Shown here: positions 18,251 to 63,735 of the stretch, in pieces | How the letters are laid out: the number at the start of each line of letters is the position of its first letter | Position numbering within the stretch: the first letter of the stretch is position 1 | DNA from: Henricia sp. BOLD:AAB3569 | Lineage: Eukaryota > Echinodermata > Asteroidea > Spinulosida > Echinasteridae | DNA: 64,000 nt | Direction of reading: 5' to 3' | NCBI GenBank assembly: GCA_037783545.1 | Contig: JBBELK010001401.1 | Span: forward strand, 1 to 64,000 | The notes under the pieces: model-generated | What the model was told of the DNA's origin: nothing | The model's database searches: none | Seen by the model: only the letters and a program-made list of their open reading frames with translations | Translations under genes and position numbers: made by a program

Positions 18251-18290
18251 CTTTCGGGGGATTTCAATGGCTTTCGGGGGATTTCAATGG
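18251..18290 (+). repeat. 20-bp truncated monomer junction, locus 1
   Basis: The last 20 bp of the unit before gcc (ctttcggggg plus atttcaatgg) occurs twice in direct succession (18251-18270 and 18271-18290). This equals a 20-bp monomer lacking 52 bp, or a 20-bp duplication. A shared GG at the breakpoint (aatgg / gcgggg) suggests microhomology. It is the first such unit in the window and a single copy. The first 62-bp monomer rearrangement follows 404 bp later. Confidence 0.95.
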
Positions 18291-20944
18291 GCCGATTTCG
18301 TTCAATGTCGACCGGGGGAGTCCTGGCTCGCTCCGGGCGGGGCTTTTGGGGGATTTCAATGGGCCGATTTCGTTCAATGTCGACCGGCGGAGTCCTGGCT
18401 CGCTCTGGGCGGGGCTTTCGGGGGATTTCAATGGGCCGATTTCGTTCAATGTCGACCGGCGGAGTCCTGGCTCGCTCCGGGCGGGGCTTTTGGGGGATTT
18501 CAATGGGCCGATTTCGTTCAATGTCGACCGGGGGAGTCCTGGCTCGCTCCGGGCGGGGCTTTCGGGGGATTTCAATGGGCCGATTTCGTTCAATGTCGAC
18601 CGGGGGAGTCCTGGCTCGCTCCGGGCGGGGCTTTTGGGGGATTTCAATGGGCCGATTTCGTTCAATGTCGACCGAGCGAGCTCTGGGCGGGGCTTTCGGG
18701 GGATTTCAATGGGCCGATTTCGTTCAATGTCGACCGGGGGAGTCCTGGCTCGCTCCGGGCGGGGCTTTTGGGGGATTTCAATGGGCCGATTTCGTTCAAT
18801 GTCGACCGGGGGAGTCCTGGCTCGCTCCGGGCGGGGCTTTTGGGGGATTTCAATGGGCCGATTTCGTTCAATGTCGACCGGGGGAGTCCTGGCTCGCTCC
18901 GGGCGGGGCTTTCGGGGGATTTCAATGGGCCGATTTCGTTCAATGTCGACCGGCGGAGTCCTGGCTCGCTCTGGGCGGGGCTTTCGGGGGATTTCAATGG
19001 GCCGATTTCGTTCAATGTCGACCGGGGGAGTCCTGGCTCGCTCCGGGCGGGGCTTTCGGGGGATTTCAATGGGCCGATTTCGTTCAATGTCGACCGGGGG
19101 AGTCCTGGCTCGCTCCGGGCGGGGCTTTTGGGGGATTTCAATGGGCCGATTTCGTTCAATGTCGACCGGGGGAGTCCTGGCTCGCTCCGGGCGGGGCTTT
19201 CGGGGGATTTCAATGGGCCGATTTCGTTCAATGTCGACCGGGGGAGTCCTGGCTCGCTCCGGGCGGGGCTTTCGGGGGATTTCAATGGGCCGATTTCGTT
19301 CAATGTCGACCGGGGGAGTCCTGGCTCGCTCCGGGCGGGGCTTTCGGGGGATTTCAATGGGCCGATTTCGTTCAATGTCGACCGGCGGAGTCCTGGCTCG
19401 CTCAGGGCGGGGCTTTCGGGGGATTTCAATGGGCCGATTTCGTTCAATGTCGACCGGCGGAGTCCTGGCTCGCTCCGGGCGGGGCTTTTGGGGGATTTCA
19501 ATGGGCCGATTTCGTTCAATGTCGACCGGGGGAGTCCTGGCTCGCTCTGGGCGGGGCTTTTGGGGGATTTCAATGGGCCGATTTCGTTCAATGTCGACCG
19601 GCGGAGTCCTGGCTCGCTCTGGGCGGGGCTTTTGGGGGATTTCAATGGGCCGATTTCGTTCAATGTCGACCGGCGGAGTCCTGGCTCGTTCTGGGCGGGG
19701 CTTTCGGGGGATTTCAATGGGCCGATTTCGTTCAATGTCGACCGGGGGAGTCCTGGCTCGCTCCGGGCGGGGCTTTCGGGGGATTTCAATGGGCCGATTT
19801 CGTTCAATGTCGACCGGGGGAGTCCTAGCTCGCTCCGGGCGGGGCTTTTGGGGGATTTCAATGGGCCGATTTCGTTCAATGTCGACCGGGGGAGTCCTGG
19901 CTCGCTCCGGGCGGGGCTTTCGGGGGATTTCAATGGGCCGATTTCGTTCAATGTCGACCGGGGGAGTCCTGGCTCGCTCCGGGCGGGGCTTTCGGGGGAT
20001 TTCAATGGGCCGATTTCGTTCAATGTCGACCGGGGGAGTCCTGGCTCGCTCCGGGCGGGGCTTTCGGGGGATTTCAATGGGCCGATTTCGTTCAATGTCG
20101 ACCGGCGGAGTCCTGGCTCGCTCTGGGCAGGGCTTTCGGGGGATTTCAATGGGCCGATTTCGTTCAATGTCGACCGGCGGAGTCCTGGCTCGCTCTGGGC
20201 GGGGCTTTCGGGGGATTTCAATGGGCCGATTTCGTTCAATGTCGACCGGGGGAGTCCTGGCTCGCTCCGGGCGGGGCTTTCGGGGGATTTCAATGGGCCG
20301 ATTTCGTTCAATGTCGACCGGCGGAGTCCTGGCTCGCTCTGGGCAGGGCTTTCGGGGGATTTCAATGGGCCGATTTCGTTCAATGTCGACCGGCGGAGTC
20401 CTGGCTCGCTCTGGGCGGGGCTTTCGGGGGATTTCAATGGGCCGATTTCGTTCAATGTCGACCGGGGGAGTCCTGGCTCGCTCCGGGCGGGGCTTTTGGG
20501 GGATTTCAATGGGCCGATTTCGTTCAATGTCGACCGGGGGAGTCCTGGCTCGCTCCGGGCGGGGCTTTCGGGGGATTTCAATGGGCCGATTTCGTTCAAT
20601 GTCGACCGGGGGAGTCCTGGCTCGCTCTGGGCGGGGCTTTTGGGGGATTTCAATGGGCCGATTTCGTTCAATGTCGACCGGGGGAGTCCTGGCTCGCTCC
20701 GGGCGGGGCTTTCGGGGGATTTCAATGGGCCGATTTCGTTCAATGTCGACCGGGGGAGTCCTGGCTCGCTCCGGGCGGGGCTTTCGGGGGATTTCAATGG
20801 GCCGATTTCGTTCAATGTCGACCGGGGGAGTCCTGGCTCGCTCCGGGCGGGGCTTTTGGGGGATTTCAATGGGCCGATTTCGTTCAATGTCGACCGGCGG
20901 AGTCCTGGCTCGCTCTGGGCGGGGCTTTCGGGGGATTTCAATGG
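18271..20944 (+). repeat. Higher-order segment U1 (2,674 bp)
   Basis: This is the segment between successive 20-bp junctions. It contains one 62-bp monomer (18654-18715), a ctcaggg variant near 19403, a cgttctggg variant near 19687 and the cctagctc monomer (stop at 19826-19828 in one frame). The order 62-bp monomer, cgttctggg, cctagctc, 20-bp junction is repeated in later segments. Confidence 0.85.
18654..18715 (+). repeat. 62-bp rearranged monomer 1
   Basis: After gtcgaccg the usual 19 bases up to the site-41 T are replaced by agcgagctc (18675-18683), so the unit is 10 bp short and gains a GAGCTC SacI site. The bases agcgagc are the reverse complement of gctcgct from the normal unit. The change could therefore be a templated foldback insertion, or simply a 10-bp deletion plus three substitutions. 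All 18 copies in the window carry this identical junction, so they descend from one event. Confidence 0.95.
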
Positions 20945-20964
20945 CTTTCGGGGGATTTCAATGG
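20925..20964 (+). repeat. 20-bp truncated monomer junction, locus 2
   Basis: Single junction with direct copies at 20925-20944 and 20945-20964. The 62-bp junction core starts at 21349, again exactly 404 bp after the second copy, as at locus 1. Confidence 0.95.
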
Positions 20965-23900
20965 GCCGATTTCGTTCAATGTCGACCGGGGGAGTCCTGG
21001 CTCGCTCCGGGCGGGGCTTTTGGGGGATTTCAATGGGCCGATTTCGTTCAATGTCGACCGGCGGAGTCCTGGCTCGCTCTGGGCGGGGCTTTCGGGGGAT
21101 TTCAATGGGCCGATTTCGTTCAATGTCGACCGGCGGAGTCCTGGCTCGCTCCGGGCGGGGCTTTTGGGGGATTTCAATGGGCCGATTTCGTTCAATGTCG
21201 ACCGGGGGAGTCCTGGCTCGCTCCGGGCGGGGCTTTCGGGGGATTTCAATGGGCCGATTTCGTTCAATGTCGACCGGGGGAGTCCTGGCTCGCTCCGGGC
21301 GGGGCTTTTGGGGGATTTCAATGGGCCGATTTCGTTCAATGTCGACCGAGCGAGCTCTGGGCGGGGCTTTCGGGGGATTTCAATGGGCCGATTTCGTTCA
21401 ATGTCGACCGGGGGAGTCCTGGCTCGCTCCGGGCGGGGCTTTTGGGGGATTTCAATGGGCCGATTTCGTTCAATGTCGACCGGGGGAGTCCTGGCTCGCT
21501 CCGGGCGGGGCTTTCGGGGGATTTCAATGGGCCGATTTCGTTCAATGTCGACCGGCGGAGTCCTGGCTCGCTCTGGGCGGGGCTTTCGGGGGATTTCAAT
21601 GGGCCGATTTCGTTCAATGTCGACCGGCGGAGTCCTGGCTCGCTCTGGGCGGGGCTTTCGGGGGATTTCAATGGGCCGATTTCGTTCAATGTCGACCGGG
21701 GGAGTCCTGGCTCGCTCCGGGCGGGGCTTTCGGGGGATTTCAATGGGCCGATTTCGTTCAATGTCGACCGGGGGAGTCCTGGCTCGCTCCGGGCGGGGCT
21801 TTCGGGGGATTTCAATGGGCCGATTTCGTTCAATGTCGACCGGGGGAGTCCTGGCTCGCTCCGGGCGGGGCTTTCGGGGGATTTCAATGGGCCGATTTCG
21901 TTCAATGTCGACCGGGGGAGTCCTGGCTCGCTCCGGGCGGGGCTTTCGGGGGATTTCAATGGGCCGATTTCGTTCAATGTCGACCGGCGGAGTCCTGGCT
22001 CGCTCAGGGCGGGGCTTTCGGGGGATTTCAATGGGCCGATTTCGTTCAATGTCGACCGGCGGAGTCCTGGCTCGCTCCGGGCGGGGCTTTTGGGGGATTT
22101 CAATGGGCCGATTTCGTTCAATGTCGACCGGGGGAGTCCTGGCTCGCTCTGGGCGGGGCTTTTGGGGGATTTCAATGGGCCGATTTCGTTCAATGTCGAC
22201 CGGCGGAGTCCTGGCTCGCTCTGGGCGGGGCTTTTGGGGGATTTCAATGGGCCGATTTCGTTCAATGTCGACCGGCGGAGTCCTGGCTCGTTCTGGGCGG
22301 GGCTTTCGGGGGATTTCAATGGGCCGATTTCGTTCAATGTCGACCGGGGGAGTCCTGGCTCGCTCCGGGCGGGGCTTTCGGGGGATTTCAATGGGCCGAT
22401 TTCGTTCAATGTCGACCGGGGGAGTCCTAGCTCGCTCCGGGCGGGGCTTTTGGGGGATTTCAATGGGCCGATTTCGTTCAATGTCGACCGGGGGAGTCCT
22501 GGCTCGCTCCGGGCGGGGCTTTCGGGGGATTTCAATGGGCCGATTTCGTTCAATGTCGACCGGGGGAGTCCTGGCTCGCTCCGGGCGGGGCTTTCGGGGG
22601 ATTTCAATGGGCCGATTTCGTTCAATGTCGACCGGGGGAGTCCTGGCTCGCTCCGGGCGGGGCTTTCGGGGGATTTCAATGGGCCGATTTCGTTCAATGT
22701 CGACCGGCGGAGTCCTGGCTCGCTCCGGGCGGGGCTTTCGGGGGATTTCAATGGGCCGATTTCGTTCAATGTCGACCGGCGGAGTCCTGGCTCGCTCCGG
22801 GCGGGGCTTTCGGGGGATTTCAATGGGCCGATTTCGTTCAATGTCGACCGGGGGAGTCCTGGCTCGCTCCGGGCGGGGCTTTTGGGGGATTTCAATGGGC
22901 CGATTTCGTTCAATGTCGACCGGGGGAGTCCTGGCTCGCTCCGGGCGGGGCTTTCGGGGGATTTCAATGGGCCGATTTCGTTCAATGTCGACCGGCGGAG
23001 TCATGGCTCGCTCTGGGCGGGCCTTTCGGGGGATTTCAATGGGCCGATTTCGTTCAATGTCGACCGGGGGAGTCCTGGCTCGCTCCGGGCGGGGCTTTTG
23101 GGGGATTTCAATGGGCCGATTTCGTTCAATGTCGACCGGGGGAGTCCTGGCTCGCTCCGGGCGGGGCTTTCGGGGGATTTCAATGGGCCGATTTCGTTCA
23201 ATGTCGACCGGGGGAGTCCTGGCTCGCTCCGGGCGGGGCTTTCGGGGGATTTCAATGGGCCGATTTCGTTCAATGTCGACCGGCGGAGTCCTGGCTCGCT
23301 CTGGGCGGGGCTTTCGGGGGATTTCAATGGGCCGATTTCGTTCAATGTCGACCGGCGGAGTCCTGGCTCGCTCTGGGCGGGGCTTTCGGGGGATTTCAAT
23401 GGGCCGATTTCGTTCAATGTCGACCGGCGGAGTCCTGGCTCGCTCCGGGCGGGGCTTTTGGGGGATTTCAATGGGCCGATTTCGTTCAATGTCGACCGGG
23501 GGAGTCCTGGCTCGCTCTGGGCGGGGCTTTTGGGGGATTTCAATGGGCCGATTTCGTTCAATGTCGACCGGCGGAGTCCTGGCTCGCTCTGGGCGGGGCT
23601 TTTGGGGGATTTCAATGGGCCGATTTCGTTCAATGTCGACCGGCGGAGTCCTGGCTCGCTCCGGGCGGGGCTTTTGGGGGATTTCAATGGGCCGATTTCG
23701 TTCAATGTCGACCGGGGGAGTCCTGGCTCGCTCCGGGCGGGGCTTTCGGGGGATTTCAATGGGCCGATTTCGTTCAATGTCGACCGGGGGAGTCCTGGCT
23801 CGCTCCGGGCGGGGCTTTCGGGGGATTTCAATGGGCCGATTTCGTTCAATGTCGACCGGGGGAGTCCTGGCTCGCTCTGGGCGGGGCTTTCGGGGGATTT

Positions 23901-24142
23901 CAATGGGCCGATTTCGTTCAATGTCGACCGGCGGAGTCCTGGCTCGCTCCGGGCGGGGCTTTTGGGGGATTTCAATGGGCCGATTTCGTTCAATGTCGAC
24001 CGGCGGAGTCCTGGCTCGCTCTGGGCGGGGCTTTCGGGGGATTTCAATGGCTTTCGGGGGATTTCAATGGGCCGATTTCGTTCAATGTCGACCGGGGAAG
24101 TCCTGGCTCGCTCCGGGCGGGGCTTTCGGGGGATTTCAATGG
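20945..24142 (+). repeat. Higher-order segment U2 (3,198 bp)
   Basis: Contains one 62-bp monomer, ctcaggg near 22003, cgttctggg near 22290 and cctagctc (22428-22430) in the same order as U1. A monomer unique to this segment lies near 22981, with tcatggctc and gggcgggcc in place of tcctggctc and gggcggggc. The segment closes with the first double 20-bp junction. Confidence 0.85.
21328..21389 (+). repeat. 62-bp rearranged monomer 2
   Basis: Same agcgagctc junction (21349-21357). It is followed by a G-C-T monomer and then G-C-C and two C-T-C monomers (alleles at sites 23-41-54). Confidence 0.95.
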
Positions 24143-24162
24143 CTTTCGGGGGATTTCAATGG
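24031..24162 (+). repeat. Double 20-bp junction, locus 3
   Basis: Two 20-bp junctions (24031-24070 and 24123-24162) start 92 bp apart, so one full 72-bp monomer lies between two truncated ones. That monomer carries the rare ggggaagtcc variant, shared only with locus 4. This paired form replaces the single junction seen at loci 1 and 2. Confidence 0.95.
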
Positions 24163-24525
24163 GCCGATTTCGTTCAATGTCGACCGGGGGAGTCCTGGCT
24201 CGCTCCGGGCGGGGCTTTTGGGGGATTTCAATGGGCCGATTTCGTTCAATGTCGACCGGCGGAGTCCTGGCTCGCTCTGGGCGGGGCTTTCGGGGGATTT
24301 CAATGGGCCGATTTCGTTCAATGTCGACCGGCGGAGTCCTGGCTCGCTCCGGGCGGGGCTTTTGGGGGATTTCAATGGGCCGATTTCGTTCAATGTCGAC
24401 CGGGGGAGTCCTGGCTCGCTCCGGGCGGGGCTTTCGGGGGATTTCAATGGGCCGATTTCGTTCAATGTCGACCGGGGGAGTCCTGGCTCGCTCCGGGCGG
24501 GGCTTTTGGGGGATTTCAATGGGCC

Positions 24526-24587
24526 GATTTCGTTCAATGTCGACCGAGCGAGCTCTGGGCGGGGCTTTCGGGGGATTTCAATGGGCC
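24526..24587 (+). repeat. 62-bp rearranged monomer 3
   Basis: Junction agcgagctc at 24547-24555, 404 bp after the 20-bp copy at 24143. It starts an 854-bp block (62 bp plus 11 monomers) that ends at the next 62-bp monomer. Confidence 0.95.
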
Positions 24588-25379
24588 GATTTCGTTCAAT
24601 GTCGACCGGGGGAGTCCTGGCTCGCTCCGGGCGGGGCTTTTGGGGGATTTCAATGGGCCGATTTCGTTCAATGTCGACCGGGGGAGTCCTGGCTCGCTCT
24701 GGGCGGGGCTTTCGGGGGATTTCAATGGGCCGATTTCGTTCAATGTCGACCGGGGGAGTCCTGGCTCGCTCCGGGCGGGGCTTTTGGGGGATTTCAATGG
24801 GCCGATTTCGTTCAATGTCGACCGGGGGAGTCCTGGCTCGCTCCGGGCGGGGCTTTTGGGGGATTTCAATGGGCCGATTTCGTTCAATGTCGACCGGGGG
24901 AGTCCTGGCTCGCTCTGGGCGGGGCTTTCGGGGGATTTCAATGGGCCGATTTCGTTCAATGTCGACCGGGGGAGTCCTGGCTCGCTCCGGGCGGGGCTTT
25001 TGGGGGATTTCAATGGGCCGATTTCGTTCAATGTCGACCGGGGGAGTCCTGGCTCGCTCTGGGCGGGGCTTTTGGGGGATTTCAATGGGCCGATTTCGTT
25101 CAATGTCGACCGGCGGAGTCCTGGCTCGCTCTGGGCGGGGCTTTTGGGGGATTTCAATGGGCCGATTTCGTTCAATGTCGACCGGCGGAGTCCTGGCTCG
25201 TTCTGGGCGGGGCTTTCGGGGGATTTCAATGGGCCGATTTCGTTCAATGTCGACCGGGGGAGTCCTGGCTCGCTCCGGGCGGGGCTTTCGGGGGATTTCA
25301 ATGGGCCGATTTCGTTCAATGTCGACCGGGGGAGTCCTGGCTCGCTCCGGGCGGGGCTTTTGGGGGATTTCAATGGGCC

Positions 25380-25441
25380 GATTTCGTTCAATGTCGACCG
25401 AGCGAGCTCTGGGCGGGGCTTTCGGGGGATTTCAATGGGCC
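25380..25441 (+). repeat. 62-bp rearranged monomer 4
   Basis: Junction at 25401-25409. It is followed by two G-C-T monomers, a C-T-C monomer and a G-C-C monomer, then a gattttg variant near 25734. Confidence 0.95.
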
Positions 25442-26887
25442 GATTTCGTTCAATGTCGACCGGGGGAGTCCTGGCTCGCTCCGGGCGGGGCTTTTGGGGG
25501 ATTTCAATGGGCCGATTTCGTTCAATGTCGACCGGGGGAGTCCTGGCTCGCTCCGGGCGGGGCTTTTGGGGGATTTCAATGGGCCGATTTCGTTCAATGT
25601 CGACCGGCGGAGTCCTGGCTCGCTCTGGGCGGGGCTTTCGGGGGATTTCAATGGGCCGATTTCGTTCAATGTCGACCGGGGGAGTCCTGGCTCGCTCCGG
25701 GCGGGGCTTTCGGGGGATTTCAATGGGCCGATTTTGTTCAATGTCGACCGGCGGAGTCCTGGCTCGCTCCGGGCGGGGCTTTCGGGGGATTTCAATGGGC
25801 CGATTTCGTTCAATGTCGACCGGCGGAGTCCTGGCTCGCTCCGGGCGGGGCTTTCGGGGGATTTCAATGGGCCGATTTCGTTCAATGTCGACCGGGGGAG
25901 TCCTGGCTCGCTCCGGGCGGGGCTTTTGGGGGATTTCAATGGGCCGATTTCGTTCAATGTCGACAGGGGGAGTCCTGGCTCGCTCCGGGCGGGGCTTTCG
26001 GGGGATTTCAATGGGCCGATTTCGTTCAATGTCGACCGGGGGAGTCCTGGCTCGCTCCGGGCGGGGCTTTTGGGGGATTTCAATGGGCCGATTTCGTTCA
26101 ATGTCGACCGGGGGAGTCCTGGCTCGCTCTGGGCGGGGCTTTTGGGGGATTTCAATGGGCCGATTTCGTTCAATGTCGACCGGCGGAGTCCTGGCTCGCT
26201 CCGGGCGGGGCTTTTGGGGGATTTCAATGGGCCGATTTCGTTCAATGTCGACCGGGGGAGTCCTGGCTCGCTCTGGGCGGGGCTTTTGGGGGATTTCAAT
26301 GGGCCGATTTCGTTCAATGTCGACCGGCGGAGTCCTGGCTCGCTCCGGGCGGGGCTTTCGGGGGATTTCAATGGGCCGATTTCGTTCAATGTCGACCGGG
26401 GGAGTCCTGGCTCGCTCCGGGCGGGGCTTTCGGGGGATTTCAATGGGCCGATTTCGTTCAATGTCGACCGGCGGAGTCCTGGCTCGCTCTGGGCGGGGCT
26501 TTCGGGGGATTTCAATGGGCCGATTTCGTTCAATGTCGACCGGCGGAGTCCTGGCTCGCTCTGGGCGGGGCTTTCGGGGGATTTCAATGGGCCGATTTCG
26601 TTCAATGTCGACCGGCGGAGTCCTGGCTCGCTCCGGGCGGGGCTTTTGGGGGATTTCAATGGGCCGATTTCGTTCAATGTCGACCGGGGGAGTCCTGGCT
26701 CGCTCTGGGCGGGGCTTTTGGGGGATTTCAATGGGCCGATTTCGTTCAATGTCGACCGGCGGAGTCCTGGCTCGCTCTGGGCGGGGCTTTCGGGGGATTT
26801 CAATGGGCCGATTTCGTTCAATGTCGACCGGGGGAGTCCTGGCTCGCTCCGGGCGGGGCTTTCGGGGGATTTCAATGGGCCGATTTT

Positions 26888-28559
26888 GTTCAATGTCGAC
26901 CGGCGGAGTCCTGGCTCGCTCCGGGCGGGGCTTTCGGGGGATTTCAATGGGCCGATTTCGTTCAATGTCGACCGGCGGAGTCCTGGCTCGCTCCGGGCGG
27001 GGCTTTCGGGGGATTTCAATGGGCCGATTTCGTTCAATGTCGACCGGGGGAGTCCTGGCTCGCTCCGGGCGGGGCTTTTGGGGGATTTCAATGGGCCGAT
27101 TTCGTTCAATGTCGACCGGCGGAGTCCTGGCTCGCTCCGGGCGGGGCTTTTGGGGGATTTCAATGGGCCGATTTCGTTCAATGTCGACCGGGGGAGTCCT
27201 GGCTCGCTCTGGGCGGGGCTTTTGGGGGATTTCAATGGGCCGATTTCGTTCAATGTCGACCGGCGGAGTCCTGGCTCGCTCTGGGCGGGGCTTTTGGGGG
27301 ATTTCAATGGGCCGATTTCGTTCAATGTCGACCGGCGGAGTCCTGGCTCGTTCTGGGCGGGGCTTTCGGGGGATTTCAATGGGCCGATTTCGTTCAATGT
27401 CGACCGGGGGAGTCCTAGCTCGCTCCGGGCGGGGCTTTTGGGGGATTTCAATGGGCCGATTTCGTTCAATGTCGACCGGGGGAGTCCTGGCTCGCTCCGG
27501 GCGGGGCTTTCGGGGGATTTCAATGGGCCGATTTCGTTCAATGTCGACCGGGGGAGTCCTGGCTCGCTCCGGGCGGGGCTTTCGGGGGATTTCAATGGGC
27601 CGATTTCGTTCAATGTCGACCGGCGGAGTCCTGGCTCGCTCCGGGCGGGGCTTTCGGGGGATTTCAATGGGCCGATTTCGTTCAATGTCGACCGGCGGAG
27701 TCCTGGCTCGCTCCGGGCGGGGCTTTCGGGGGATTTCAATGGGCCGATTTCGTTCAATGTCGACCGGGGGAGTCCTGGCTCGCTCCGGGCGGGGCTTTTG
27801 GGGGATTTCAATGGGCCGATTTCGTTCAATGTCGACCGGCGGAGTCCTGGCTCGCTCCGGGCGGGGCTTTTGGGGGATTTCAATGGGCCGATTTCGTTCA
27901 ATGTCGACCGGGGGAGTCCTGGCTCGCTCTGGGCGGGGCTTTTGGGGGATTTCAATGGGCCGATTTCGTTCAATGTCGACCGGCGGAGTCCTGGCTCGCT
28001 CTGGGCGGGGCTTTTGGGGGATTTCAATGGGCCGATTTCGTTCAATGTCGACCGGCGGAGTCCTGGCTCGTTCTGGGCGGGGCTTTCGGGGGATTTCAAT
28101 GGGCCGATTTCGTTCAATGTCGACCGGGGGAGTCCTAGCTCGCTCCGGGCGGGGCTTTTGGGGGATTTCAATGGGCCGATTTCGTTCAATGTCGACCGGG
28201 GGAGTCCTGGCTCGCTCCGGGCGGGGCTTTCGGGGGATTTCAATGGGCCGATTTCGTTCAATGTCGACCGGGGGAGTCCTGGCTCGCTCCGGGCGGGGCT
28301 TTCGGGGGATTTCAATGGGCCGATTTCGTTCAATGTCGACCGGCGGAGTCCTGGCTCGCTCCGGGCGGGGCTTTCGGGGGATTTCAATGGGCCGATTTCG
28401 TTCAATGTCGACCGGCGGAGTCCTGGCTCGCTCCGGGCGGGGCTTTCGGGGGATTTCAATGGGCCGATTTCGTTCAATGTCGACCGGGGGAGTCCTGGCT
28501 CGCTCCGGGCGGGGCTTTTGGGGGATTTCAATGGGCCGATTTCGTTCAATGTCGACCGG
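26888..28559 (+). repeat. 720-bp tandem duplication (10 monomers)
   Basis: Positions 26888-27839 match 27608-28559, an offset of exactly 10 monomers. The repeated unit includes the cgttctggg monomer (27350 and 28070) and the cctagctc monomer (27418 and 28138). The equivalent block in the neighbouring copy (near 32910) is single, so the duplication happened after or during the 5,564-bp event, in one copy only. Confidence 0.88.
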
Positions 28560-29594
28560 GGGAGTCCTGGCTCGCTCCGGGCGGGGCTTTCGGGGGATTT
28601 CAATGGGCCGATTTCGTTCAATGTCGACCGGCGGAGTCCTGGCTCGCTCTGGGCGGGGCTTTCGGGGGATTTCAATGGGCCGATTTCGTTCAATGTCGAC
28701 CGGGGGAGTCCTGGCTCGCTCCGGGCGGGGCTTTTGGGGGATTTCAATGGGCCGATTTCGTTCAATGTCGACCGGGGGAGTCCTGGCTCGCTCCGGGCGG
28801 GGCTTTCGGGGGATTTCAATGGGCCGATTTCGTTCAATGTCGACCGGGGGAGTCCTGGCTCGCTCCGGGCGGGGCTTTCGGGGGATTTCAATGGGCCGAT
28901 TTCGTTCAATGTCGACCGGGGGAGTCCTGGCTCGCTCTGGGCGGGGCTTTCGGGGGATTTCAATGGGCCGATTTCGTTCAATGTCGACCGGCGGAGTCCT
29001 GGCTCGCTCTGGGCGGGGCTTTCGGGGGATTTCAATGAGCCGATTTCGTTCAATGTCGACCGGCGGAGTCCTGGCTCGCTCTGGGCGGGGCTTTTGGGGG
29101 ATTTCAATGGGCCGATTTCGTTCAATGTCGACCGGCGGAGTCCTGGCTCGCTCTGGGCGGGGCTTTTGGGGGATTTCAATGGGCCGATTTCGTTCAATGT
29201 CGACCGGCGGAGTCCTGGCTCGCTCCGGGCGGGGCTTTTGGGGGATTTCAATGGGCCGATTTCGTTCAATGTCGACCGGGGGAGTCCTGGCTCGCTCCGG
29301 GCGGGGCTTTCGGGGGATTTCAATGGGCCGATTTCGTTCAATGTCGACCGGGGGAGTCCTGGCTCGCTCCGGGCGGGGCTTTCGGGGGATTTCAATGGGC
29401 CGATTTCGTTCAATGTCGACCGGGGGAGTCCTGGCTCGCTCTGGGCGGGGCTTTCGGGGGATTTCAATGGGCCGATTTCGTTCAATGTCGACCGGCGGAG
29501 TCCTGGCTCGCTCCGGGCGGGGCTTTTGGGGGATTTCAATGGGCCGATTTCGTTCAATGTCGACCGGCGGAGTCCTGGCTCGCTCTGGGCGGGG

Positions 29595-29726
29595 CTTTCG
29601 GGGGATTTCAATGGCTTTCGGGGGATTTCAATGGGCCGATTTCGTTCAATGTCGACCGGGGAAGTCCTGGCTCGCTCCGGGCGGGGCTTTCGGGGGATTT
29701 CAATGGCTTTCGGGGGATTTCAATGG
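29595..29726 (+). repeat. Double 20-bp junction, locus 4
   Basis: Junctions at 29595-29634 and 29687-29726, 92 bp apart, with the ggggaagtcc variant in the enclosed monomer. It is the direct duplicate of locus 3 at a 5,564-bp offset. Confidence 0.95.
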
Positions 29727-30089: not shown

Positions 30090-30151
30090 GATTTCGTTCA
30101 ATGTCGACCGAGCGAGCTCTGGGCGGGGCTTTCGGGGGATTTCAATGGGCC
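30090..30151 (+). repeat. 62-bp rearranged monomer 5
   Basis: Junction at 30111-30119. It is the counterpart of monomer 3 at the 5,564-bp offset and lies 404 bp after the 20-bp copy at 29707. Confidence 0.95.
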
Positions 30152-53401: not shown

Positions 53402-53533
53402 CTTTCGGGGGATTTCAATGGCTTTCGGGGGATTTCAATGGGCCGATTTCGTTCAATGTCGACCGGGGGAGTCCTGGCTCGCTCCGGGCGGGGCTTTCGG
53501 GGGATTTCAATGGCTTTCGGGGGATTTCAATGG
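53402..53533 (+). repeat. Double 20-bp junction, locus 8
   Basis: Junctions at 53402-53441 and 53494-53533. The caatgagcc variant lies just upstream (about 53276), as at loci 5 to 7. No 62-bp monomer follows at 404 bp. Confidence 0.95.
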
Positions 53534-55209
53534 GCCGATTTCGTTCAATGTCGACCGGCGGAGTCCTGGCTCGCTCTGGGCGGGGCTTTCGGGGGATTTC
53601 AATGGGCCGATTTCGTTCAATGTCGACCGGCGGAGTCCTGGCTCGCTCCGGGCGGGGCTTTTGGGGGATTTCAATGGGCCGATTTCGTTCAATGTCGACC
53701 GGGGGAGTCCTGGCTCGCTCCGGGCGGGGCTTTCGGGGGATTTCAATGGGCCGATTTCGTTCAATGTCGACCGGGGGAGTCCTGGCTCGCTCCGGGCGGG
53801 GCTTTTGGGGGATTTCAATGGGCCGATTTCGTTCAATGTCGACCGGGGGAGTCCTGGCTCGCTCTGGGCGGGGCTTTTGGGGGATTTCAATGGGCCGATT
53901 TCGTTCAATGTCGACCGGCGGAGTCCTGGCTCGCTCTGGGCGGGGCTTTTGGGGGATTTCAATGGGCCGATTTCGTTCAATGTCGACCGGCGGAGTCCTG
54001 GCTCGTTCTGGGCGGGGCTTTCGGGGGATTTCAATGGGCCGATTTCGTTCAATGTCGACCGGGGGAGTCCTAGCTCGCTCCGGGCGGGGCTTTTGGGGGA
54101 TTTCAATGGGCCGATTTCGTTCAATGTCGACCGGGGGAGTCCTGGCTCGCTCCGGGCGGGGCTTTCGGGGGATTTCAATGGGCCGATTTCGTTCAATGTC
54201 GACCGGGGGAGTCCTGGCTCGCTCCGGGCGGGGCTTTCGGGGGATTTCAATGGGCCGATTTCGTTCAATGTCGACCGGCGGAGTCCTGGCTCGCTCCGGG
54301 CGGGGCTTTCGGGGGATTTCAATGGGCCGATTTCGTTCAATGTCGACCGGCGGAGTCCTGGCTCGCTCCGGGCGGGGCTTTCGGGGGATTTCAATGGGCC
54401 GATTTCGTTCAATGTCGACCGGGGGAGTCCTGGCTCGCTCCGGGCGGGGCTTTTGGGGGATTTCAATGGGCCGATTTCGTTCAATGTCGACCGGGGGAGT
54501 CCTGGCTCGCTCCGGGCGGGGCTTTCGGGGGATTTCAATGGGCCGATTTCGTTCAATGTCGACCGGCGGAGTCCTGGCTCGCTCTGGGCGGGGCTTTCGG
54601 GGGATTTCAATGGGCCGATTTCGTTCAATGTCGACCGGGGGAGTCCTGGCTCGCTCCGGGCGGGGCTTTTGGGGGATTTCAATGGGCCGATTTCGTTCAA
54701 TGTCGACCGGGGGAGTCCTGGCTCGCTCCGGGCGGGGCTTTCGGGGGATTTCAATGGGCCGATTTCGTTCAATGTCGACCGGGGGAGTCCTGGCTCGCTC
54801 CGGGCGGGGCTTTCGGGGGATTTCAATGGGCCGATTTCGTTCAATGTCGACCGGGGGAGTCCTGGCTCCTTCTGGGCGGGGCTTTCGGGGGATTTCAATG
54901 GGCCGATTTCGTTCAATGTCGACCGGCGGAGTCCTGGCTCGCTCTGGGCGGGGCTTTCGGGGGATTTCAATGAGCCGATTTCGTTCAATGTCGACCGGCG
55001 GAGTCCTGGCTCGCTCCGGGCGGGGCTTTTGGGGGATTTCAATGGGCCGATTTCGTTCAATGTCGACCGGCGGAGTCCTGGCTCGCTCTGGGCGGGGCTT
55101 TCGGGGGATTTCAATGGCTTTCGGGGGATTTCAATGGGCCGATTTCGTTCAATGTCGACCGGGGGAGTCCTGGCTCGCTCCGGGCGGGGCTTTCGGGGGA
55201 TTTCAATGG
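53514..55209 (+). repeat. Higher-order segment U8 (1,696 bp)
   Basis: A near copy of U6 with one extra monomer: cgttctggg near 54004, cctagctc at 54073, caatgagcc near 54971 and the next double junction 1,025 bp after the cctagctc monomer. Spacing from the 20-bp unit to the cctagctc monomer equals that in U5 (53494 to 54073; 34027 to 34606). A unique ccttctggg monomer lies near 54849. Confidence 0.85.
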
Positions 55210-55229
55210 CTTTCGGGGGATTTCAATGG
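55098..55229 (+). repeat. Double 20-bp junction, locus 9
   Basis: Junctions at 55098-55137 and 55190-55229. The 62-bp junction follows at 55614, giving the sixth instance of the 404-bp spacing. Confidence 0.95.
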
Positions 55230-55592
55230 GCCGATTTCGTTCAATGTCGACCGGGGGAGTCCTGGCTCGCTCCGGGCGGGGCTTTTGGGGGATTTCAATG
55301 GGCCGATTTCGTTCAATGTCGACCGGCGGAGTCCTGGCTCGCTCTGGGCGGGGCTTTCGGGGGATTTCAATGGGCCGATTTCGTTCAATGTCGACCGGCG
55401 GAGTCCTGGCTCGCTCCGGGCGGGGCTTTTGGGGGATTTCAATGGGCCGATTTCGTTCAATGTCGACCGGGGGAGTCCTGGCTCGCTCCGGGCGGGGCTT
55501 TCGGGGGATTTCAATGGGCCGATTTCGTTCAATGTCGACCGGGGGAGTCCTGGCTCGCTCCGGGCGGGGCTTTTGGGGGATTTCAATGGGCC

Positions 55593-55654
55593 GATTTCGT
55601 TCAATGTCGACCGAGCGAGCTCTGGGCGGGGCTTTCGGGGGATTTCAATGGGCC
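55593..55654 (+). repeat. 62-bp rearranged monomer 16
   Basis: Junction at 55614-55622. The following block shares the gtccttgctc variant (about 55758) with the block at 39.2 kb, at an offset of 16,619 bp falling to 16,547 after a one-monomer loss. Confidence 0.95.
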
Positions 55655-56374
55655 GATTTCGTTCAATGTCGACCGGGGGAGTCCTGGCTCGCTCTGGGCG
55701 GGGCTTTCGGGGGATTTCAATGGGCCGATTTCGTTCAATGTCGACCGGGGGAGTCCTTGCTCGCTCCGGGCGGGGCTTTTGGGGGATTTCAATGGGCCGA
55801 TTTCGTTCAATGTCGACCGGGGGAGTCCTGGCTCGCTCCGGGCGGGGCTTTTGGGGGATTTCAATGGGCCGATTTCGTTCAATGTCGACCGGGGGAGTCC
55901 TGGCTCGCTCTGGGCGGGGCTTTCGGGGGATTTCAATGGGCCGATTTCGTTCAATGTCGACCGGGGGAGTCCTGGCTCGCTCCGGGCGGGGCTTTTGGGG
56001 GATTTCAATGGGCCGATTTCGTTCAATGTCGACCGGGGGAGTCCTGGCTCGCTCTGGGCGGGGCTTTTGGGGGATTTCAATGGGCCGATTTCGTTCAATG
56101 TCGACCGGCGGAGTCCTGGCTCGCTCTGGGCGGGGCTTTTGGGGGATTTCAATGGGCCGATTTCGTTCAATGTCGACCGGCGGAGTCCTGGCTCGTTCTG
56201 GGCGGGGCTTTCGGGGGATTTCAATGGGCCGATTTCGTTCAATGTCGACCGGGGGAGTCCTGGCTCGCTCCGGGCGGGGCTTTCGGGGGATTTCAATGGG
56301 CCGATTTCGTTCAATGTCGACCGGGGGAGTCCTGGCTCGCTCCGGGCGGGGCTTTTGGGGGATTTCAATGGGCC

Positions 56375-56436
56375 GATTTCGTTCAATGTCGACCGAGCGA
56401 GCTCTGGGCGGGGCTTTCGGGGGATTTCAATGGGCC
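56375..56436 (+). repeat. 62-bp rearranged monomer 17
   Basis: Junction at 56396-56404, 782 bp after monomer 16. Confidence 0.95.
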
Positions 56437-56652
56437 GATTTCGTTCAATGTCGACCGGGGGAGTCCTGGCTCGCTCCGGGCGGGGCTTTTGGGGGATTTC
56501 AATGGGCCGATTTCGTTCAATGTCGACCGGGGGAGTCCTGGCTCGCTCTGGGCGGGGCTTTCGGGGGATTTCAATGGGCCGATTTCGTTCAATGTCGACC
56601 GGGGGAGTCCTGGCTCGCTCCGGGCGGGGCTTTTGGGGGATTTCAATGGGCC

Positions 56653-56714
56653 GATTTCGTTCAATGTCGACCGAGCGAGCTCTGGGCGGGGCTTTCGGGG
56701 GATTTCAATGGGCC
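56653..56714 (+). repeat. 62-bp rearranged monomer 18
   Basis: Junction at 56674-56682, 278 bp after monomer 17. It is the last one in the window; the next 6.7 kb has no length variant at all. Confidence 0.95.
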
Positions 56715-59162
56715 GATTTCGTTCAATGTCGACCGGGGGAGTCCTGGCTCGCTCCGGGCGGGGCTTTTGGGGGATTTCAATGGGCCGATTTCGTTCAATG
56801 TCGACCGGGGGAGTCCTGGCTCGCTCTGGGCGGGGCTTTCGGGGGATTTCAATGGGCCGATTTCGTTCAATGTCGACCGGGGGAGTCCTGGCTCGCTCCG
56901 GGCGGGGCTTTTGGGGGATTTCAATGGGCCGATTTCGTTCAATGTCGACCGGGGGAGTCCTGGCTCGCTCCGGGCGGGGCTTTCGGGGGATTTCAATGGG
57001 CCGATTTCGTTCAATGTCGACCGGCGGAGTCCTGGCTCGCTCCGGGCGGGGCTTTCGGGGGATTTCAATGGGCCGATTTCGTTCAATGTCGACCGGGGGA
57101 GTCCTGGCTCGCTCCGGGCGGGGCTTTCGGGGGATTTCAATGGGCCGATTTCGTTCAATGTCGACCGGGGGAGTCCTGGCTCGCTCCGGGCGGGGCTTTC
57201 GGGGGATTTCAATGGGCCGATTTCGTTCAATGTCGACCGGGGGAGTCCTGGCTCGCTCCGGGCGGGGCTTTCGGGGGATTTCAATGGGCCGATTTCGTTC
57301 AATGTCGACCGGGGGAGTCCTGGCTCGCTCCGGGCGGGGCTTTCGGGGGATTTCAATGGGCCGATTTCGTTCAATGTCGACCGGCGGAGTCCTGGCTCGC
57401 TCTGGGCGGGGCTTTCGGGGGATTTCAATGGGCCGATTTCGTTCAATGTCGACCGGCGGAGTCCTGGCTCGCTCCGGGCGGGGCTTTTGGGGGATTTCAA
57501 TGGGCGGATTTCGTTCAATGTCGACCGGCGGAGTCCTGGCTCGCTCTGGGCGGGGCTTTTGGGGGATTTCAATGGGCCGATTTCGTTCAATGTCGACCGG
57601 CGGAGTCCTGGCTCGCTCTGGGCGGGGCTTTCGGGGGATTTCAATGGGCCGATTTCGTTCAATGTCGACCGGGGGAGTCCTGGCTCGCTCCGGGCGGGGC
57701 TTTCGGGGGATTTCAATGGGCCGATTTCGTTCAATGTCGACCGGGGGAGTCCTGGCTCGCTCCGGGCGGGGCTTTCGGGGGATTTCAATGGGCCGATTTC
57801 GTTCAATGTCGACCGGGGGAGTCCTGGCTCGCTCCGGGCGGGGCTTTCGGGGGATTTCAATGGGCCGATTTCGTTCAATGTCGACCGGCGGAGTCCTGGC
57901 TCGCTCTGGGCGGGGCTTTCGGGGGATTTCAATGGGCCGATTTCGTTCAATGTCGACCGGCGGAGTCCTGGCTCGCTCTGGGCGGGGCTTTCGGGGGATT
58001 TCAATGGGCCGATTTCGTTCAATGTCGACCGGCGGAGTCCTGGCTCGCTCCGGGCGGGGCTTTTGGGGGATTTCAATGGGCCGATTTCGTTCAATGTCGA
58101 CCGGGGGAGTCCTGGCTCGCTCTGGGCGGGGCTTTTGGGGGATTTCAATGGGCCGATTTCGTTCAATGTCGACCGGCGGAGTCCTGGCTCGCTCCGGGCG
58201 GGGCTTTCGGGGGATTTCAATGGGCCGATTTCGTTCAATGTCGACCGGCGGAGTCCTGGCTCGCTCCGGGCGGGGCTTTCGGGGGATTTCAATGGGCCGA
58301 TTTCGTTCAATGTCGACCGGGGGAGTCCTGGCTCGCTCCGGGCGGGGCTTTCGGGGGATTTCAATGGGCCGATTTCGTTCAATGTCGACCGGCGGAGTCC
58401 TGGCTCGCTCTGGGCGGGGCTTTCGGGGGATTTCAATGGGCCGATTTCGTTCAATGTCGACCGGCGGAGTCCTGGCTCGCTCTGGGCGGGGCTTTCGGGG
58501 GATTTCAATGGGCCGATTTCGTTCAATGTCGACCGGGGGAGTCCTGGCTCGCTCCGGGCGGGGCTTTCGGGGGATTTCAATGGGCCGATTTCGTTCAATG
58601 TCGACCGGGGGAGTCCTGGCTCGCTCCGGCCGGGGCTTTCGGGGGATTTCAATGGGCCGATTTCGTTCAATGTCGACCGGGGGAGTCCTGGCTCGCTCCG
58701 GCCGGGGCTTTCGGGGGATTTCAATGGGCCGATTTCGTTCAATGTCGACCGGGGGAGTCCTGGCTCGCTCCGGGCGGGGCTTTCGGGGGATTTCAATGGG
58801 CCGATTTCGTTCAATGTCGACCGGGGGAGTCCTGGCTCGCTCCGGGCGGGGCTTTCGGGGGATTTCAATGGGCCGATTTCGTTCAATGTCGACCGGGGGA
58901 GTCCTGGCTCGCTCCGGGCGGGGCTTTCGGGGGATTTCAATGGGCCGATTTCGTTCAATGTCGACCGGGGGAGTCCTGGCTCGCTCCGGGCGGGGCTTTC
59001 GGGGGATTTCAATGGGCCGATTTCGTTCAATGTCGACCGGCGGAGTCCTGGCTCGCTCTGGGCGGGGCTTTCGGGGGATTTCAATGGGCCGATTTCGTTC
59101 AATGTCGACCGGCGGAGTCCTGGCTCGCTCCGGGCGGGGCTTTCTGGGGATTTCAATGGGCC

Positions 59163-59234
59163 GATTTCGTTCAATGTCGACCGGGGGAGTCCTGGCTCGC
59201 TCCGGGCGGGGCTTTCGGGGGATTTCAATGGGCC
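59163..59234 (+). repeat. Reference consensus monomer (72 bp)
   Basis: This copy has the commonest allele at each variable site (G23, C41, C54) and opens a run of 12 identical copies. Within the unit, gatttcaatgggcc (59-72) abuts the next unit's gatttcgttcaatgtcgacc (1-20). The two blocks look like diverged copies separated by a gttc insertion, so the 72-mer may itself have grown from a shorter ancestral repeat. The GTCGAC palindrome and the GC-box core are both intact. Confidence 0.95.
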
Positions 59235-60026
59235 GATTTCGTTCAATGTCGACCGGGGGAGTCCTGGCTCGCTCCGGGCGGGGCTTTCGGGGGATTTCAA
59301 TGGGCCGATTTCGTTCAATGTCGACCGGGGGAGTCCTGGCTCGCTCCGGGCGGGGCTTTCGGGGGATTTCAATGGGCCGATTTCGTTCAATGTCGACCGG
59401 GGGAGTCCTGGCTCGCTCCGGGCGGGGCTTTCGGGGGATTTCAATGGGCCGATTTCGTTCAATGTCGACCGGGGGAGTCCTGGCTCGCTCCGGGCGGGGC
59501 TTTCGGGGGATTTCAATGGGCCGATTTCGTTCAATGTCGACCGGGGGAGTCCTGGCTCGCTCCGGGCGGGGCTTTCGGGGGATTTCAATGGGCCGATTTC
59601 GTTCAATGTCGACCGGGGGAGTCCTGGCTCGCTCCGGGCGGGGCTTTCGGGGGATTTCAATGGGCCGATTTCGTTCAATGTCGACCGGGGGAGTCCTGGC
59701 TCGCTCCGGGCGGGGCTTTCGGGGGATTTCAATGGGCCGATTTCGTTCAATGTCGACCGGGGGAGTCCTGGCTCGCTCCGGGCGGGGCTTTCGGGGGATT
59801 TCAATGGGCCGATTTCGTTCAATGTCGACCGGGGGAGTCCTGGCTCGCTCCGGGCGGGGCTTTCGGGGGATTTCAATGGGCCGATTTCGTTCAATGTCGA
59901 CCGGGGGAGTCCTGGCTCGCTCCGGGCGGGGCTTTCGGGGGATTTCAATGGGCCGATTTCGTTCAATGTCGACCGGGGGAGTCCTGGCTCGCTCCGGGCG
60001 GGGCTTTCGGGGGATTTCAATGGGCC
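59163..60026 (+). repeat. Run of 12 identical consensus monomers
   Basis: Twelve successive 72-bp units (864 bp) show no difference by eye. The run is bounded on the left by a tttctgggg monomer and on the right by a C-T-C monomer starting at 60027. This is the longest perfectly homogeneous run I found and marks a local focus of recent amplification. Confidence 0.88.
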
Positions 60027-63000
60027 GATTTCGTTCAATGTCGACCGGCGGAGTCCTGGCTCGCTCTGGGCGGGGCTTTCGGGGGATTTCAATGGGCCGA
60101 TTTCGTTCAATGTCGACCGGCGGAGTCCTGGCTCGCTCTGGGCGGGGCTTTCGGGGGATTTCAATGGGCCGATTTCGTTCAATGTCGACCGGCGGAGTCC
60201 TGGCTCGCTCCGGGCGGGGCTTTTGGGGGATTTCAATGGGCCGATTTCGTTCAATGTCGACCGGGGGAGTCCTGGCTCGCTCTGGGCGGGGCTTTTGGGG
60301 GATTTCAATGGGCCGATTTCGTTCAATGTCGACCGGCGGAGTCCTGGCTCGCTCCGGGCGGGGCTTTCGGGGGATTTCAATGGGCCGATTTCGTTCAATG
60401 TCGACCGGCGGAGTCCTGGCTCGCTCCGGGCGGGGCTTTCGGGGGATTTCAATGGGCCGATTTCGTTCAATGTCGACCGGGGGAGTCCTGGCTCGCTCCG
60501 GGCGGGGCTTTCGGGGGATTTCAATGGGCCGATTTCGTTCAATGTCGACCGGCGGAGTCCTGGCTCGCTCTGGGCGGGGCTTTCGGGGGATTTCAATGGG
60601 CCGATTTCGTTCAATGTCGACCGGCGGAGTCCTGGCTCGCTCCGGGCGGGGCTTTTGGGGGATTTCAATGGGCCGATTTCGTTCAATGTCGACCGGGGGA
60701 GTCCTGGCTCGCTCTGGGCGGGGCTTTTGGGGGATTTCAATGGGCCGATTTCGTTCAATGTCGACCGGCGGAGTCCTGGCTCGCTCCGGGCGGGGCTTTC
60801 GGGGGATTTCAATGGGCCGATTTCGTTCAATGTCGACCGGGGGAGTCCTGGCTCGCTCCGGGCGGGGCTTTCGGGGGATTTCAATGGGCCGATTTCGTTC
60901 AATGTCGACCGGGGGAGTCCTGGCTCGCTCCGGGCGGGGCTTTCGGGGGATTTCAATGGGCCGATTTCGTTCAATGTCGACCGGGGGAGTCCTGGCTCGC
61001 TCCGGGCGGGGCTTTCGGGGGATTTCAATGGGCCGATTTCGTTCAATGTCGACCGGCGGAGTCCTGGCTCGCTCTGGGCGGGGCTTTCGGGGGATTTCAA
61101 TGGGCCGATTTCGTTCAATGTCGACCGGCGGAGTCCTGGCTCGCTCTGGGCGGGGCTTTCTGGGGATTTCAATGGGCCGATTTCGTTCAATGTCGACCGG
61201 CGGAGTCCTGGCTCGCTCCGGGCGGGGCTTTTGGGGGATTTCAATGGGCCGATTTCGTTCAATGTCGACCGGGGGAGTCCTGGCTCGCTCTGGGCGGGGC
61301 TTTTGGGGGATTTCAATGGGCCGATTTCGTTCAATGTCGACCGGCGGAGTCCTGGCTCGCTCCGGGCGGGGCTTTCGGGGGATTTCAATGGGCCGATTTC
61401 GTTCAATGTCGACCGGCGGAGTCCTGGCTCGCTCCGGGCGGGGCTTTCGGGGGATTTCAATGGGCCGATTTCGTTCAATGTCGACCGGGGGAGTCCTGGC
61501 TCGCTCCGGGCGGGGCTTTCGGGGGATTTCAATGGGCCGATTTCGTTCAATGTCGACCGGCGGAGTCCTGGCTCGCTCTGGGCGGGGCTTTCGGGGGATT
61601 TCAATGGGCCGATTTCGTTCAATGTCGACCGGCGGAGTCCTGGCTCGCTCTGGGCGGGGCTTTCGGGGGATTTCAATGGGCCGATTTCGTTCAATGTCGA
61701 CCGGCGGAGTCCTGGCTCGCTCCGGGCGGGGCTTTTGGGGGATTTCAATGGGCCGATTTCGTTCAATGTCGACCGGGGGAGTCCTGGCTCGCTCCGGGCG
61801 GGGCTTTTGGGGGATTTCAATGGGCCGATTTCGTTCAATGTCGACCGGCGGAGTCCTGGCTCGCTCCGGGCGGGGCTTTCGGGGGATTTCAATGGGCCGA
61901 TTTCGTTCAATGTCGACCGGGGGAGTCCTGGCTCGCTCCGGGCGGGGCTTTCGGGGGATTTCAATGGGCCGATTTCGTTCAATGTCGACCGGGGGAGTCC
62001 TGGCTCGCTCCGGGCGGGGCTTTCGGGGGATTTCAATGGGCCGATTTCGTTCAATGTCGACCGGGGGAGTCCTGGCTCGCTCCGGGCGGGGCTTTCGGGG
62101 GATTTCAATGGGCCGATTTCGTTCAATGTCGACCGGCGGAGTCCTGGCTCGCTCCGGGCGGGGCTTTCGGGGGATTTCAATGGGCCGATTTCGTTCAATG
62201 TCGACCGGGGGAGTCCTGGCTCGCTCCGGGCGGGGCTTTCGGGGGATTTCAATGGGCCGATTTCGTTCAATGTCGACCGGGGGAGTCCTGGCTCGCTCCG
62301 GGCGGGGCTTTCGGGGGATTTCAATGGGCCGATTTCGTTCAATGTCGACCGGGGGAGTCCTGGCTCGCTCCGGGCGGGGCTTTCGGGGGATTTCAATGGG
62401 CCGATTTCGTTCAATGTCGACCGGGGGAGTCCTGGCTCGCTCCGGGCGGGGCTTTCGGGGGATTTCAATGGGCCGATTTCGTTCAATGTCGACCGGGGGA
62501 GTCCTGGCTCGCTCCGGGCGGGGCTTTCGGGGGATTTCAATGGGCCGATTTCGTTCAATGTCGACCGGGGGAGTCCTGGCTCGCTCCGGGCGGGGCTTTC
62601 GGGGGATTTCAATGGGCCGATTTCGTTCAATGTCGACCGGCGGAGTCCTGGCTCGCTCTGGGCGGGGCTTTCGGGGGATTTCAATGGGCCGATTTCGTTC
62701 AATGTCGACCGGCGGAGTCCTGGCTCGCTCTGGGCGGGGCTTTCTGGGGATTTCAATGGGCCGATTTCGTTCAATGTCGACCGGCGGAGTCCTGGCTCGC
62801 TCCGGGCGGGGCTTTTGGGGGATTTCAATGGGCCGATTTCGTTCAATGTCGACCGGGGGAGTCCTGGCTCGCTCTGGGCGGGGCTTTTGGGGGATTTCAA
62901 TGGGCCGATTTCGTTCAATGTCGACCGGCGGAGTCCTGGCTCGCTCTGGGCGGGGCTTTCGGGGGATTTCAATGGGCCGATTTCGTTCAATGTCGACCGG

Positions 63001-63387
63001 CGGAGTCCTGGCTCGCTCCGGGCGGGGCTTTTGGGGGATTTCAATGGGCCGATTTCGTTCAATGTCGACCGGGGGAGTCCTGGCTCGCTCTGGGCGGGGC
63101 TTTTGGGGGATTTCAATGGGCCGATTTCGTTCAATGTCGACCGGCGGAGTCCTGGCTCGCTCCGGGCGGGGCTTTCGGGGGATTTCAATGAGCCGATTTC
63201 GTTCAATGTCGACCGGGGGAGTCCTGGCTCGCTCCGGGCGGGGCTTTCGGGGGATTTCAATGGGCCGATTTCGTTCAATGTCGACCGGGGGAGTCCTGGC
63301 TCGCTCCGGGCGGGGCTTTCGGGGGATTTCAATGGGCCGATTTCGTTCAATGTCGACCGGGGGAGTCCTGGCTCGCTCCGGGCGGGG

Positions 63388-63427
63388 CTTTCGGGGGATT
63401 TCAATGGCTTTCGGGGGATTTCAATGG
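63388..63427 (+). repeat. 20-bp truncated monomer junction, locus 10
   Basis: Direct copies at 63388-63407 and 63408-63427. It pairs with locus 11, but at 308 bp instead of the usual 92 bp. Confidence 0.95.
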
Positions 63428-63695
63428 GCCGATTTCGTTCAATGTCGACCGGGGGAGTCCTGGCTCGCTCCGGGCGGGGCTTTCGGGGGATTTCAATGGG
63501 CCGATTTCGTTCAATGTCGACCGGGGGAGTCCTGGCTCGCTCCGGGCGGGGCTTTCGGGGGATTTCAATGGGCCGATTTCGTTCAATGTCGACCGGGGGA
63601 GTCCTGGCTCGCTCCGGGCGGGGCTTTCGGGGGATTTCAATGGGCCGATTTCGTTCAATGTCGACCGGGGGAGTCCTGGCTCGCTCCGGGCGGGG

Positions 63696-63735
63696 CTTTC
63701 GGGGGATTTCAATGGCTTTCGGGGGATTTCAATGG
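63696..63735 (+). repeat. 20-bp truncated monomer junction, locus 11
   Basis: Direct copies at 63696-63715 and 63716-63735. Four consensus monomers lie between this and locus 10, where the other pairs have one. All following monomers to the window end are consensus, and no 62-bp monomer is seen before the window stops. Confidence 0.95.

What the first reader, a model, noticed from the sequence alone, without database searches (positions are those of the whole stretch)
18251..63735. Higher-order organisation marked by two derived monomers at fixed spacing
A 20-bp truncated unit (18 copies) and a 62-bp rearranged unit (18 copies) recur in ordered modules. In six places (18271, 20945, 24143, 29707, 38591 and 55210) the 62-bp junction starts exactly 404 bp after the 20-bp unit. 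In four places (loci 5, 6, 7 and 9) the cctagctc monomer ends 1,025 bp before the double 20-bp junction. This is a higher-order repeat structure comparable in kind to alpha-satellite HORs.
Basis: seen in the sequence. Interest (0 to 1): 0.72.

Follow-up and report, generated by a model that had tools for sequence, protein, structure and literature searches.

The report
Nested block duplications in 72-bp satellite
The window is one long satellite DNA array of a 72-base unit, and its two odd-length units keep fixed distances most likely because whole blocks of neighbouring units were copied together several times, an ordinary way for satellite DNA to grow that is unusually easy to read here.

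Summary
The window is a 72-bp satellite from end to end; 902 parsed monomers include 18 20-bp and 18 62-bp units. Six of 18 20-bp units have a 62-bp unit at one identical spacing; random placement reached six in 1 of 20,000 trials. The cctagctc spacing holds at five of seven double-20 loci, not four.

The six modules are identical over 442 bp, so the spacing is best read as inherited from one ancestral block. The array holds nested tandem duplications of about 5,564, 5,081, 2,920, 1,624 and 720 bp, with 0, 1 or (1,624 bp) 6 substitutions between aligned copies, and whole-monomer losses. Neutral in-register duplication and deletion gave six or more equal spacings in 21-48 of 60 accepted runs when the founders lay close.

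The alpha-satellite comparison is partly right: block copying yes, but no array-wide period, and monomers are 97% alike. It resembles local-nested HORs. The first 11.6 kb has an indel excess that looks like consensus error. Host not identified.

The parts
1..64000 (.). 72-bp satellite array (902 parsed monomers, 63% GC, CpG O/E 1.14); runs off both ends of the window
1..11600 (.). stretch with an excess of 1-bp indels (85 indels and 24 substitutions, against 5 and 103 in the rest), mostly in about 63-7316 and 10484-11490: probable consensus error; monomer classes here are unreliable
   Evidence: the 11,600 border was chosen
18256..18697 (+). module 1: 20-bp unit, five monomers, 62-bp unit (442 bp)
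20930..21371 (+). module 2, identical 442 bp
24128..24569 (+). module 3, identical 442 bp (another 20-bp unit at 24036)
29692..30133 (+). module 4, identical 442 bp (another 20-bp unit at 29600)
38576..39017 (+). module 5, identical 442 bp (another 20-bp unit at 38484)
55195..55636 (+). module 6, identical 442 bp (another 20-bp unit at 55103)
23501..33853 (+). tandem duplication, unit 5,564 bp (23501-29064); second copy 29065-33853 lacks 72 bp and 720 bp; 1 substitution, 17 unmatched bases at the end of the stretch given
26888..28327 (+). 720-bp (10-monomer) tandem duplication inside the first 5,564-bp copy, 0 differences between copies
31821..37186 (+). tandem duplication, unit 2,920 bp; exact match of 2,446 bp
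35533..38780 (+). tandem duplication, unit 1,624 bp; 1,479 bp identical, then 6 substitutions in the last 145 bp of the unit
41806..52469 (+). tandem duplication, unit 5,081 bp; 0 substitutions and three 1-bp gaps in 5.58 kb
53191..58266 (+). region covered by copies of 33724-34811, 37116-39075, 39149-40126, 48101-49418 and 43902-45288 at offsets of 7.9-19.5 kb (inferred: a large older duplication cut down by deletions)
63393..63720 (+). last two 20-bp units, 308 bp apart, among consensus-type monomers

Best explanation
A young, homogenised 72-bp satellite array. A 20-bp unit (a 52-bp deletion, or equally a 20-bp duplication, with GG shared at the joint) and a 62-bp unit (a small local inversion: GAGCGAGC, the reverse complement of GCTCGCTC of the same monomer, replaces part of it, as in a template switch) each arose once, about six monomers apart in one ancestral block. 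Homology-driven unequal recombination between misaligned copies (unequal sister-chromatid exchange, or out-of-register break-induced replication) then duplicated and deleted whole-monomer blocks of roughly 0.7-5.6 kb in nested order, carrying both units along as passengers. Shown: identical modules, nested tandem block copies, whole-monomer losses. Inferred: single origins, the recombination pathway, the order of events, absence of selection on the spacing.
For: Six modules identical over 442 bp. One junction sequence in 18 of 18 20-bp units (in five different 100-bp contexts) and one 80-bp context in 18 of 18 62-bp units; allowing two errors finds no further near-copies of either junction. 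Tandem copies at 5,564, 5,081, 2,920, 1,624 and 720 bp: 1, 0, 0, 6 and 0 substitutions in the stretches aligned (the stretches were chosen from exact matches, which favours low counts). Losses of 72 and 720 bp are whole monomers. After 16 kb the only parsed lengths other than 72 bp are the 18+18 derived units and three 71-bp units, so no other out-of-register joint is visible. Neutral in-register simulation, close founders: six or more equal spacings in 23, 37, 48 of 60 accepted runs (founders six monomers apart, mean block 10, 25, 50; accepted from 5,658, 3,090, 1,762 tries) and in 21, 30, 27 of 60 (founders 1-50 apart; from 10,074, 6,068, 4,517 tries).
Against: With founders placed anywhere the simulation reaches six in only 1 of 38, 6 of 51 and 10 of 60 accepted runs, so a close founding pair has to be assumed. 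The locus at 53407 keeps the cctagctc distance with different monomers between: an older copy altered by conversion, or coincidence. Modules 1 and 2 lie in stretches that differ by 41 substitutions and a 48-bp gap over 2.7 kb as aligned, so their copying is older or more complex. Exact matches of 700 bp or more sit on 36 different offsets up to 31 kb, which needs more events than the five listed here.
Confidence: 0.88

Rival explanations
1. The spacing is functional: the 20-bp and 62-bp units form a protein- or chromatin-positioning module whose 404-bp spacing is kept by selection.
For: Six identical spacings; a fifth cctagctc spacing with different monomers between.
Against: The six modules are identical at every base, not only in spacing; 6 of 18 20-bp units have their next 62-bp unit more than 2,000 bp away and 12 of 18 62-bp units lie outside the module; neutral simulation suffices with close founders.
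Confidence: 0.04
2. Assembly artefact: the duplicated blocks are false expansions made by the assembler.
For: Copies without substitutions over several kb, with three 1-bp G-run gaps as the only differences in the 5,081-bp pair; the left 11.6 kb has an error-like indel excess.
Against: Some block pairs differ by whole-monomer losses (72 and 720 bp) and by substitutions (1 in the 5,564-bp pair, 6 in the 1,624-bp pair, 41 around modules 1 and 2); several sizes and depths of nesting.
Confidence: 0.07
3. True alpha-satellite-type HOR array: one multi-monomer unit repeated at a fixed period.
For: Local periods of 71, 68 and 24 monomers within segments.
Against: No array-wide period up to 400 monomers, local periods cover about two copies each, monomers 97.2% alike.
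Confidence: 0.04
4. Giant repetitive protein gene (72 bp = 24 codons, open frames up to 10,180 codons).
For: Long open frames.
Against: Three forward and two reverse frames of the consensus monomer lack stops, so length means little; the 20- and 62-bp units and 1-bp indels shift the frame.
Confidence: 0.01

Closest known systems
Local-nested HORs (LN-HORs) of human centromeres, and Arabidopsis centromere arrays, as annotated by HiCAT (PMC10053651; passages seen)
   Same: Tandem amplification of sub-blocks of monomers; runs of single-monomer expansion, reported there for Arabidopsis
   Different: 72-bp GC-rich monomer, no canonical HOR unit found, landmarks are length variants; no centromere evidence here
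Alpha-satellite HORs (passages of PMC8997354, and PMC8122249; abstract of PMC2853522)
   Same: Multi-monomer blocks copied together at near identity; pathways proposed there (unequal exchange, BIR) fit
   Different: No fixed period, monomers already 97% alike, no CENP-B box match, monomer 72 bp instead of about 171 bp
Palorus subdepressus 72-bp pericentric satellite (passage of PMC8122249)
   Same: Monomer length only
   Different: Described there as built of T2A5T octanucleotides and 22-bp inverted-repeat units; the consensus here is 63% GC and has no A5 run

Membership tests
satellite DNA | long head-to-tail array of one unit | tested here: met
   One 72-bp unit covers 1-64000
alpha-satellite-type HOR | one multi-monomer unit repeated in tandem at a fixed period | tested here: not met
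   No array-wide period up to lag 400
alpha-satellite-type HOR | monomers inside a unit clearly diverged while unit copies are nearly identical | tested here: not met
   Block copies nearly identical, but monomers 97.2% alike on average
alpha-satellite-type HOR | CENP-B box core in some monomers | tested here: not met
   TTCG....A..CGGG (pattern recalled): 0 on both strands; not every alpha array has it (passages of PMC8997354: Y chromosome)
local-nested / irregular HOR | ordered blocks of several monomers copied nearby, with nested sub-block amplification | tested here: met
   no published HOR caller was run
centromeric satellite | CENP-A/CENH3 occupancy | not testable with these tools
   Needs ChIP or CUT&RUN; host unknown

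The most novel reading that the evidence does not exclude
This is an array caught at the birth of higher-order structure: monomers still about 97% alike, each structural variant of single origin, and block duplications recent enough (0-1 substitutions between copies in four of the five pairs aligned) to be ordered event by event, giving a natural record to separate unequal sister exchange from break-induced replication, perhaps in an active centromere or another rapidly expanding chromosome region.
Probability: 0.2. Interest if true: 0.45.

Novelty: new member of a known kind. Interest (0 to 1): 0.25.

Why it matters
The process is textbook satellite evolution. The value is practical: two length variants, apparently of single origin, and a few rare base variants act as landmarks that let the duplication history of a nearly uniform array be read, a useful test case for HOR callers and for models of satellite growth. 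It also warns that a fixed spacing between rare monomers in a satellite can arise by descent and does not by itself indicate function.

Tried and rejected
Identification of host or satellite: no genome is held for the window; no match in plasmids (window 1-432, a stretch with suspected errors) or phages (window 25406-25838); exact monomer patterns gave 0 in genome contigs (37 and 21 bases) and 0 in viral contigs (37 bases); six monomer substrings from both strands gave 0 papers; no Rfam match up to E = 1 for 24000-26000, the only stretch given. A text search for 72-bp satellites, tandem repeats or monomers listed 12 papers, of which I opened one (PMC8122249, passages); a search for GC-rich satellites with 72 bp gave 0. 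Metagenome contigs was not searched. A eukaryotic host is my inference.

Literature for comparison: searches (1 paper listed; 2; 36 found, 10 listed; 104 found, 12 listed) were seen as listings; I then saw passages of PMC8997354, PMC10053651 and PMC8122249 and the abstract and outline of PMC2853522. No paper was read whole.

CENP-B box: 0 matches. G-quadruplex with loops up to 7: 1 match; loops up to 8: 846 on the + strand; not pursued. An older short HOR period: lag 7 is raised at class level (0.204, z 7.9), but the three common sites taken singly show little at lag 7 beyond 12 kb (0.07, 0.06, 0.05), so I do not claim it. The circular-shift control I judged uninformative. Protein coding rejected.

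Full report
What is there. The window is one tandem array of a 72-bp, 63% GC unit that runs off both ends. Cutting at a conserved anchor gives 902 monomers in 104 distinct sequences, 67 of them seen once. Most variation among the 72-bp monomers sits at three sites with two main alleles each (41 G/C, 59 C/T, 72 C/T in my phase), and all eight combinations occur; mean pairwise identity of the 72-bp monomers is 97.2%.

Checking the claim. There are 18 units of 20 bp and 18 of 62 bp, none before 18,256. Placing 18 and 18 marks at random reached six equal spacings in 1 of 20,000 trials; a circular-shift control reached six in 49 of 901 shifts, which I take to be the same pairs sliding together, untested. 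The 62-bp units also repeat spacings among themselves (854, 782 and 278 bp, three times each; subtraction).

Why the spacing is fixed. The six modules are identical over 442 bp. All 18 20-bp units share one junction, in five different 100-bp contexts, and all 18 62-bp units share one 80-bp context, as expected if each arose once. The 20-bp unit fits a 52-bp deletion (or 20-bp duplication) with GG shared at the joint; the 62-bp unit carries GAGCGAGC, the reverse complement of GCTCGCTC in the same monomer, a small inversion of the template-switch kind (read from the sequences; mechanism inferred).

Block duplications. Exact self-matches of 700 bp or more number 38, on 36 offsets; the longest lie at offsets 5,080/5,081, 2,920, 5,564 and 1,624. 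As aligned: a 5,081-bp unit in tandem with 0 substitutions and three 1-bp gaps over 5.58 kb; a 5,564-bp unit whose second copy has 1 substitution and lacks 72 and 720 bp (plus 17 unmatched bases at the end of the stretch given); a 2,920-bp unit with 0 substitutions, a 72-bp loss, and a 202-bp gap that follows from my giving unequal stretches; a 1,624-bp unit identical over 1,479 bp with 6 substitutions in its last 145 bp; a 720-bp unit with no difference. The stretches were picked from exact matches, which favours low counts. The pair of stretches around modules 1 and 2 shows 41 substitutions and a 48-bp gap over 2.7 kb. The region 53.2-58.3 kb is covered by copies of blocks 7.9-19.5 kb upstream, most simply a large older duplication trimmed by deletions (inferred). 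The longest repeated monomer word is 35 units, against 4-7 in 30 permutations and 7-11 in 30 Markov strings.

Mechanism. The block losses seen are whole monomers, and beyond 16 kb no odd-length joints appear other than the derived units and three 71-bp units, so breakpoints are in register, as in homologous unequal exchange or out-of-register break-induced replication; both models are described in PMC8997354 (passages). A neutral simulation of in-register tandem duplication and deletion gave six or more equal spacings in 23, 37 and 48 of 60 accepted runs (mean block 10, 25, 50 monomers) with founders six monomers apart, in 21, 30 and 27 of 60 with founders 1-50 apart, and in 1 of 38, 6 of 51 and 10 of 60 with founders anywhere. 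Runs were accepted when both marks first numbered 14-22; most tries failed this (60 of 5,658, 3,090 and 1,762 accepted; 60 of 10,074, 6,068 and 4,517, then 38 of 20,000, 51 of 20,000 and 60 of 18,708). Equal spacing is thus common under neutrality once two rare monomers start close together, and uncommon if they start far apart.

Comparison with alpha satellites. HOR in the wide sense fits; HOR in the alpha sense does not: no array-wide period up to 400 monomers and monomers that are hardly diverged. The nearest description seen is local-nested HORs, and the monomer expansion reported for Arabidopsis, in PMC10053651 (passages). No CENP-B box core was found. No published HOR caller could be run here.

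Sequence quality and origin. Up to 11.6 kb there are 85 indels and 24 substitutions against the template; beyond it 5 and 103 (the border was set, and the common alleles at the three sites count as matches). Of the left-side changes, 45 are deletions within base runs, which points to consensus error in that part; a real older region is not excluded. The block analysis rests mainly on 18-64 kb. The host was not identified; CpG O/E is 1.14. Whether the array is centromeric cannot be told here.

Noticed in passing
window 1-11600: Excess of 1-bp indels (85, against 5 in the rest), many in G runs, with a nearly indel-free island at about 7.3-10.4 kb: probable low-quality consensus.
   Followed up: partly
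whole window: All eight combinations of the three common sites occur, and pairwise correlations beyond 12 kb are weak except 41-59 (r 0.345): conversion or recurrent mutation within monomers.
   Followed up: partly
whole window: High CpG (O/E 1.14), and several recurrent variants (sites 24, 59, 64, 72) are CpG transitions, which would fit cytosine methylation in the host.
   Followed up: no
window 43864, 49377, 49808: The only differences between the two 5,081-bp copies are three one-base contractions of the same GGGGG run, possibly residual read error.
   Followed up: partly
window 38250-38251: Two adjacent substitutions are the only differences between 37116-39075 and its copy at 53735-55694.
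   Followed up: no
window 11778-12546: A 769-bp block upstream of all 20- and 62-bp units recurs exactly at 26648, 32140 and 35060, so block copying reaches beyond the coordinates of the finding.
   Followed up: no
whole window, + strand: A G-rich stretch with four G runs (one loop of 8) recurs along the array: 846 matches, but only 1 with loops up to 7.
   Followed up: no
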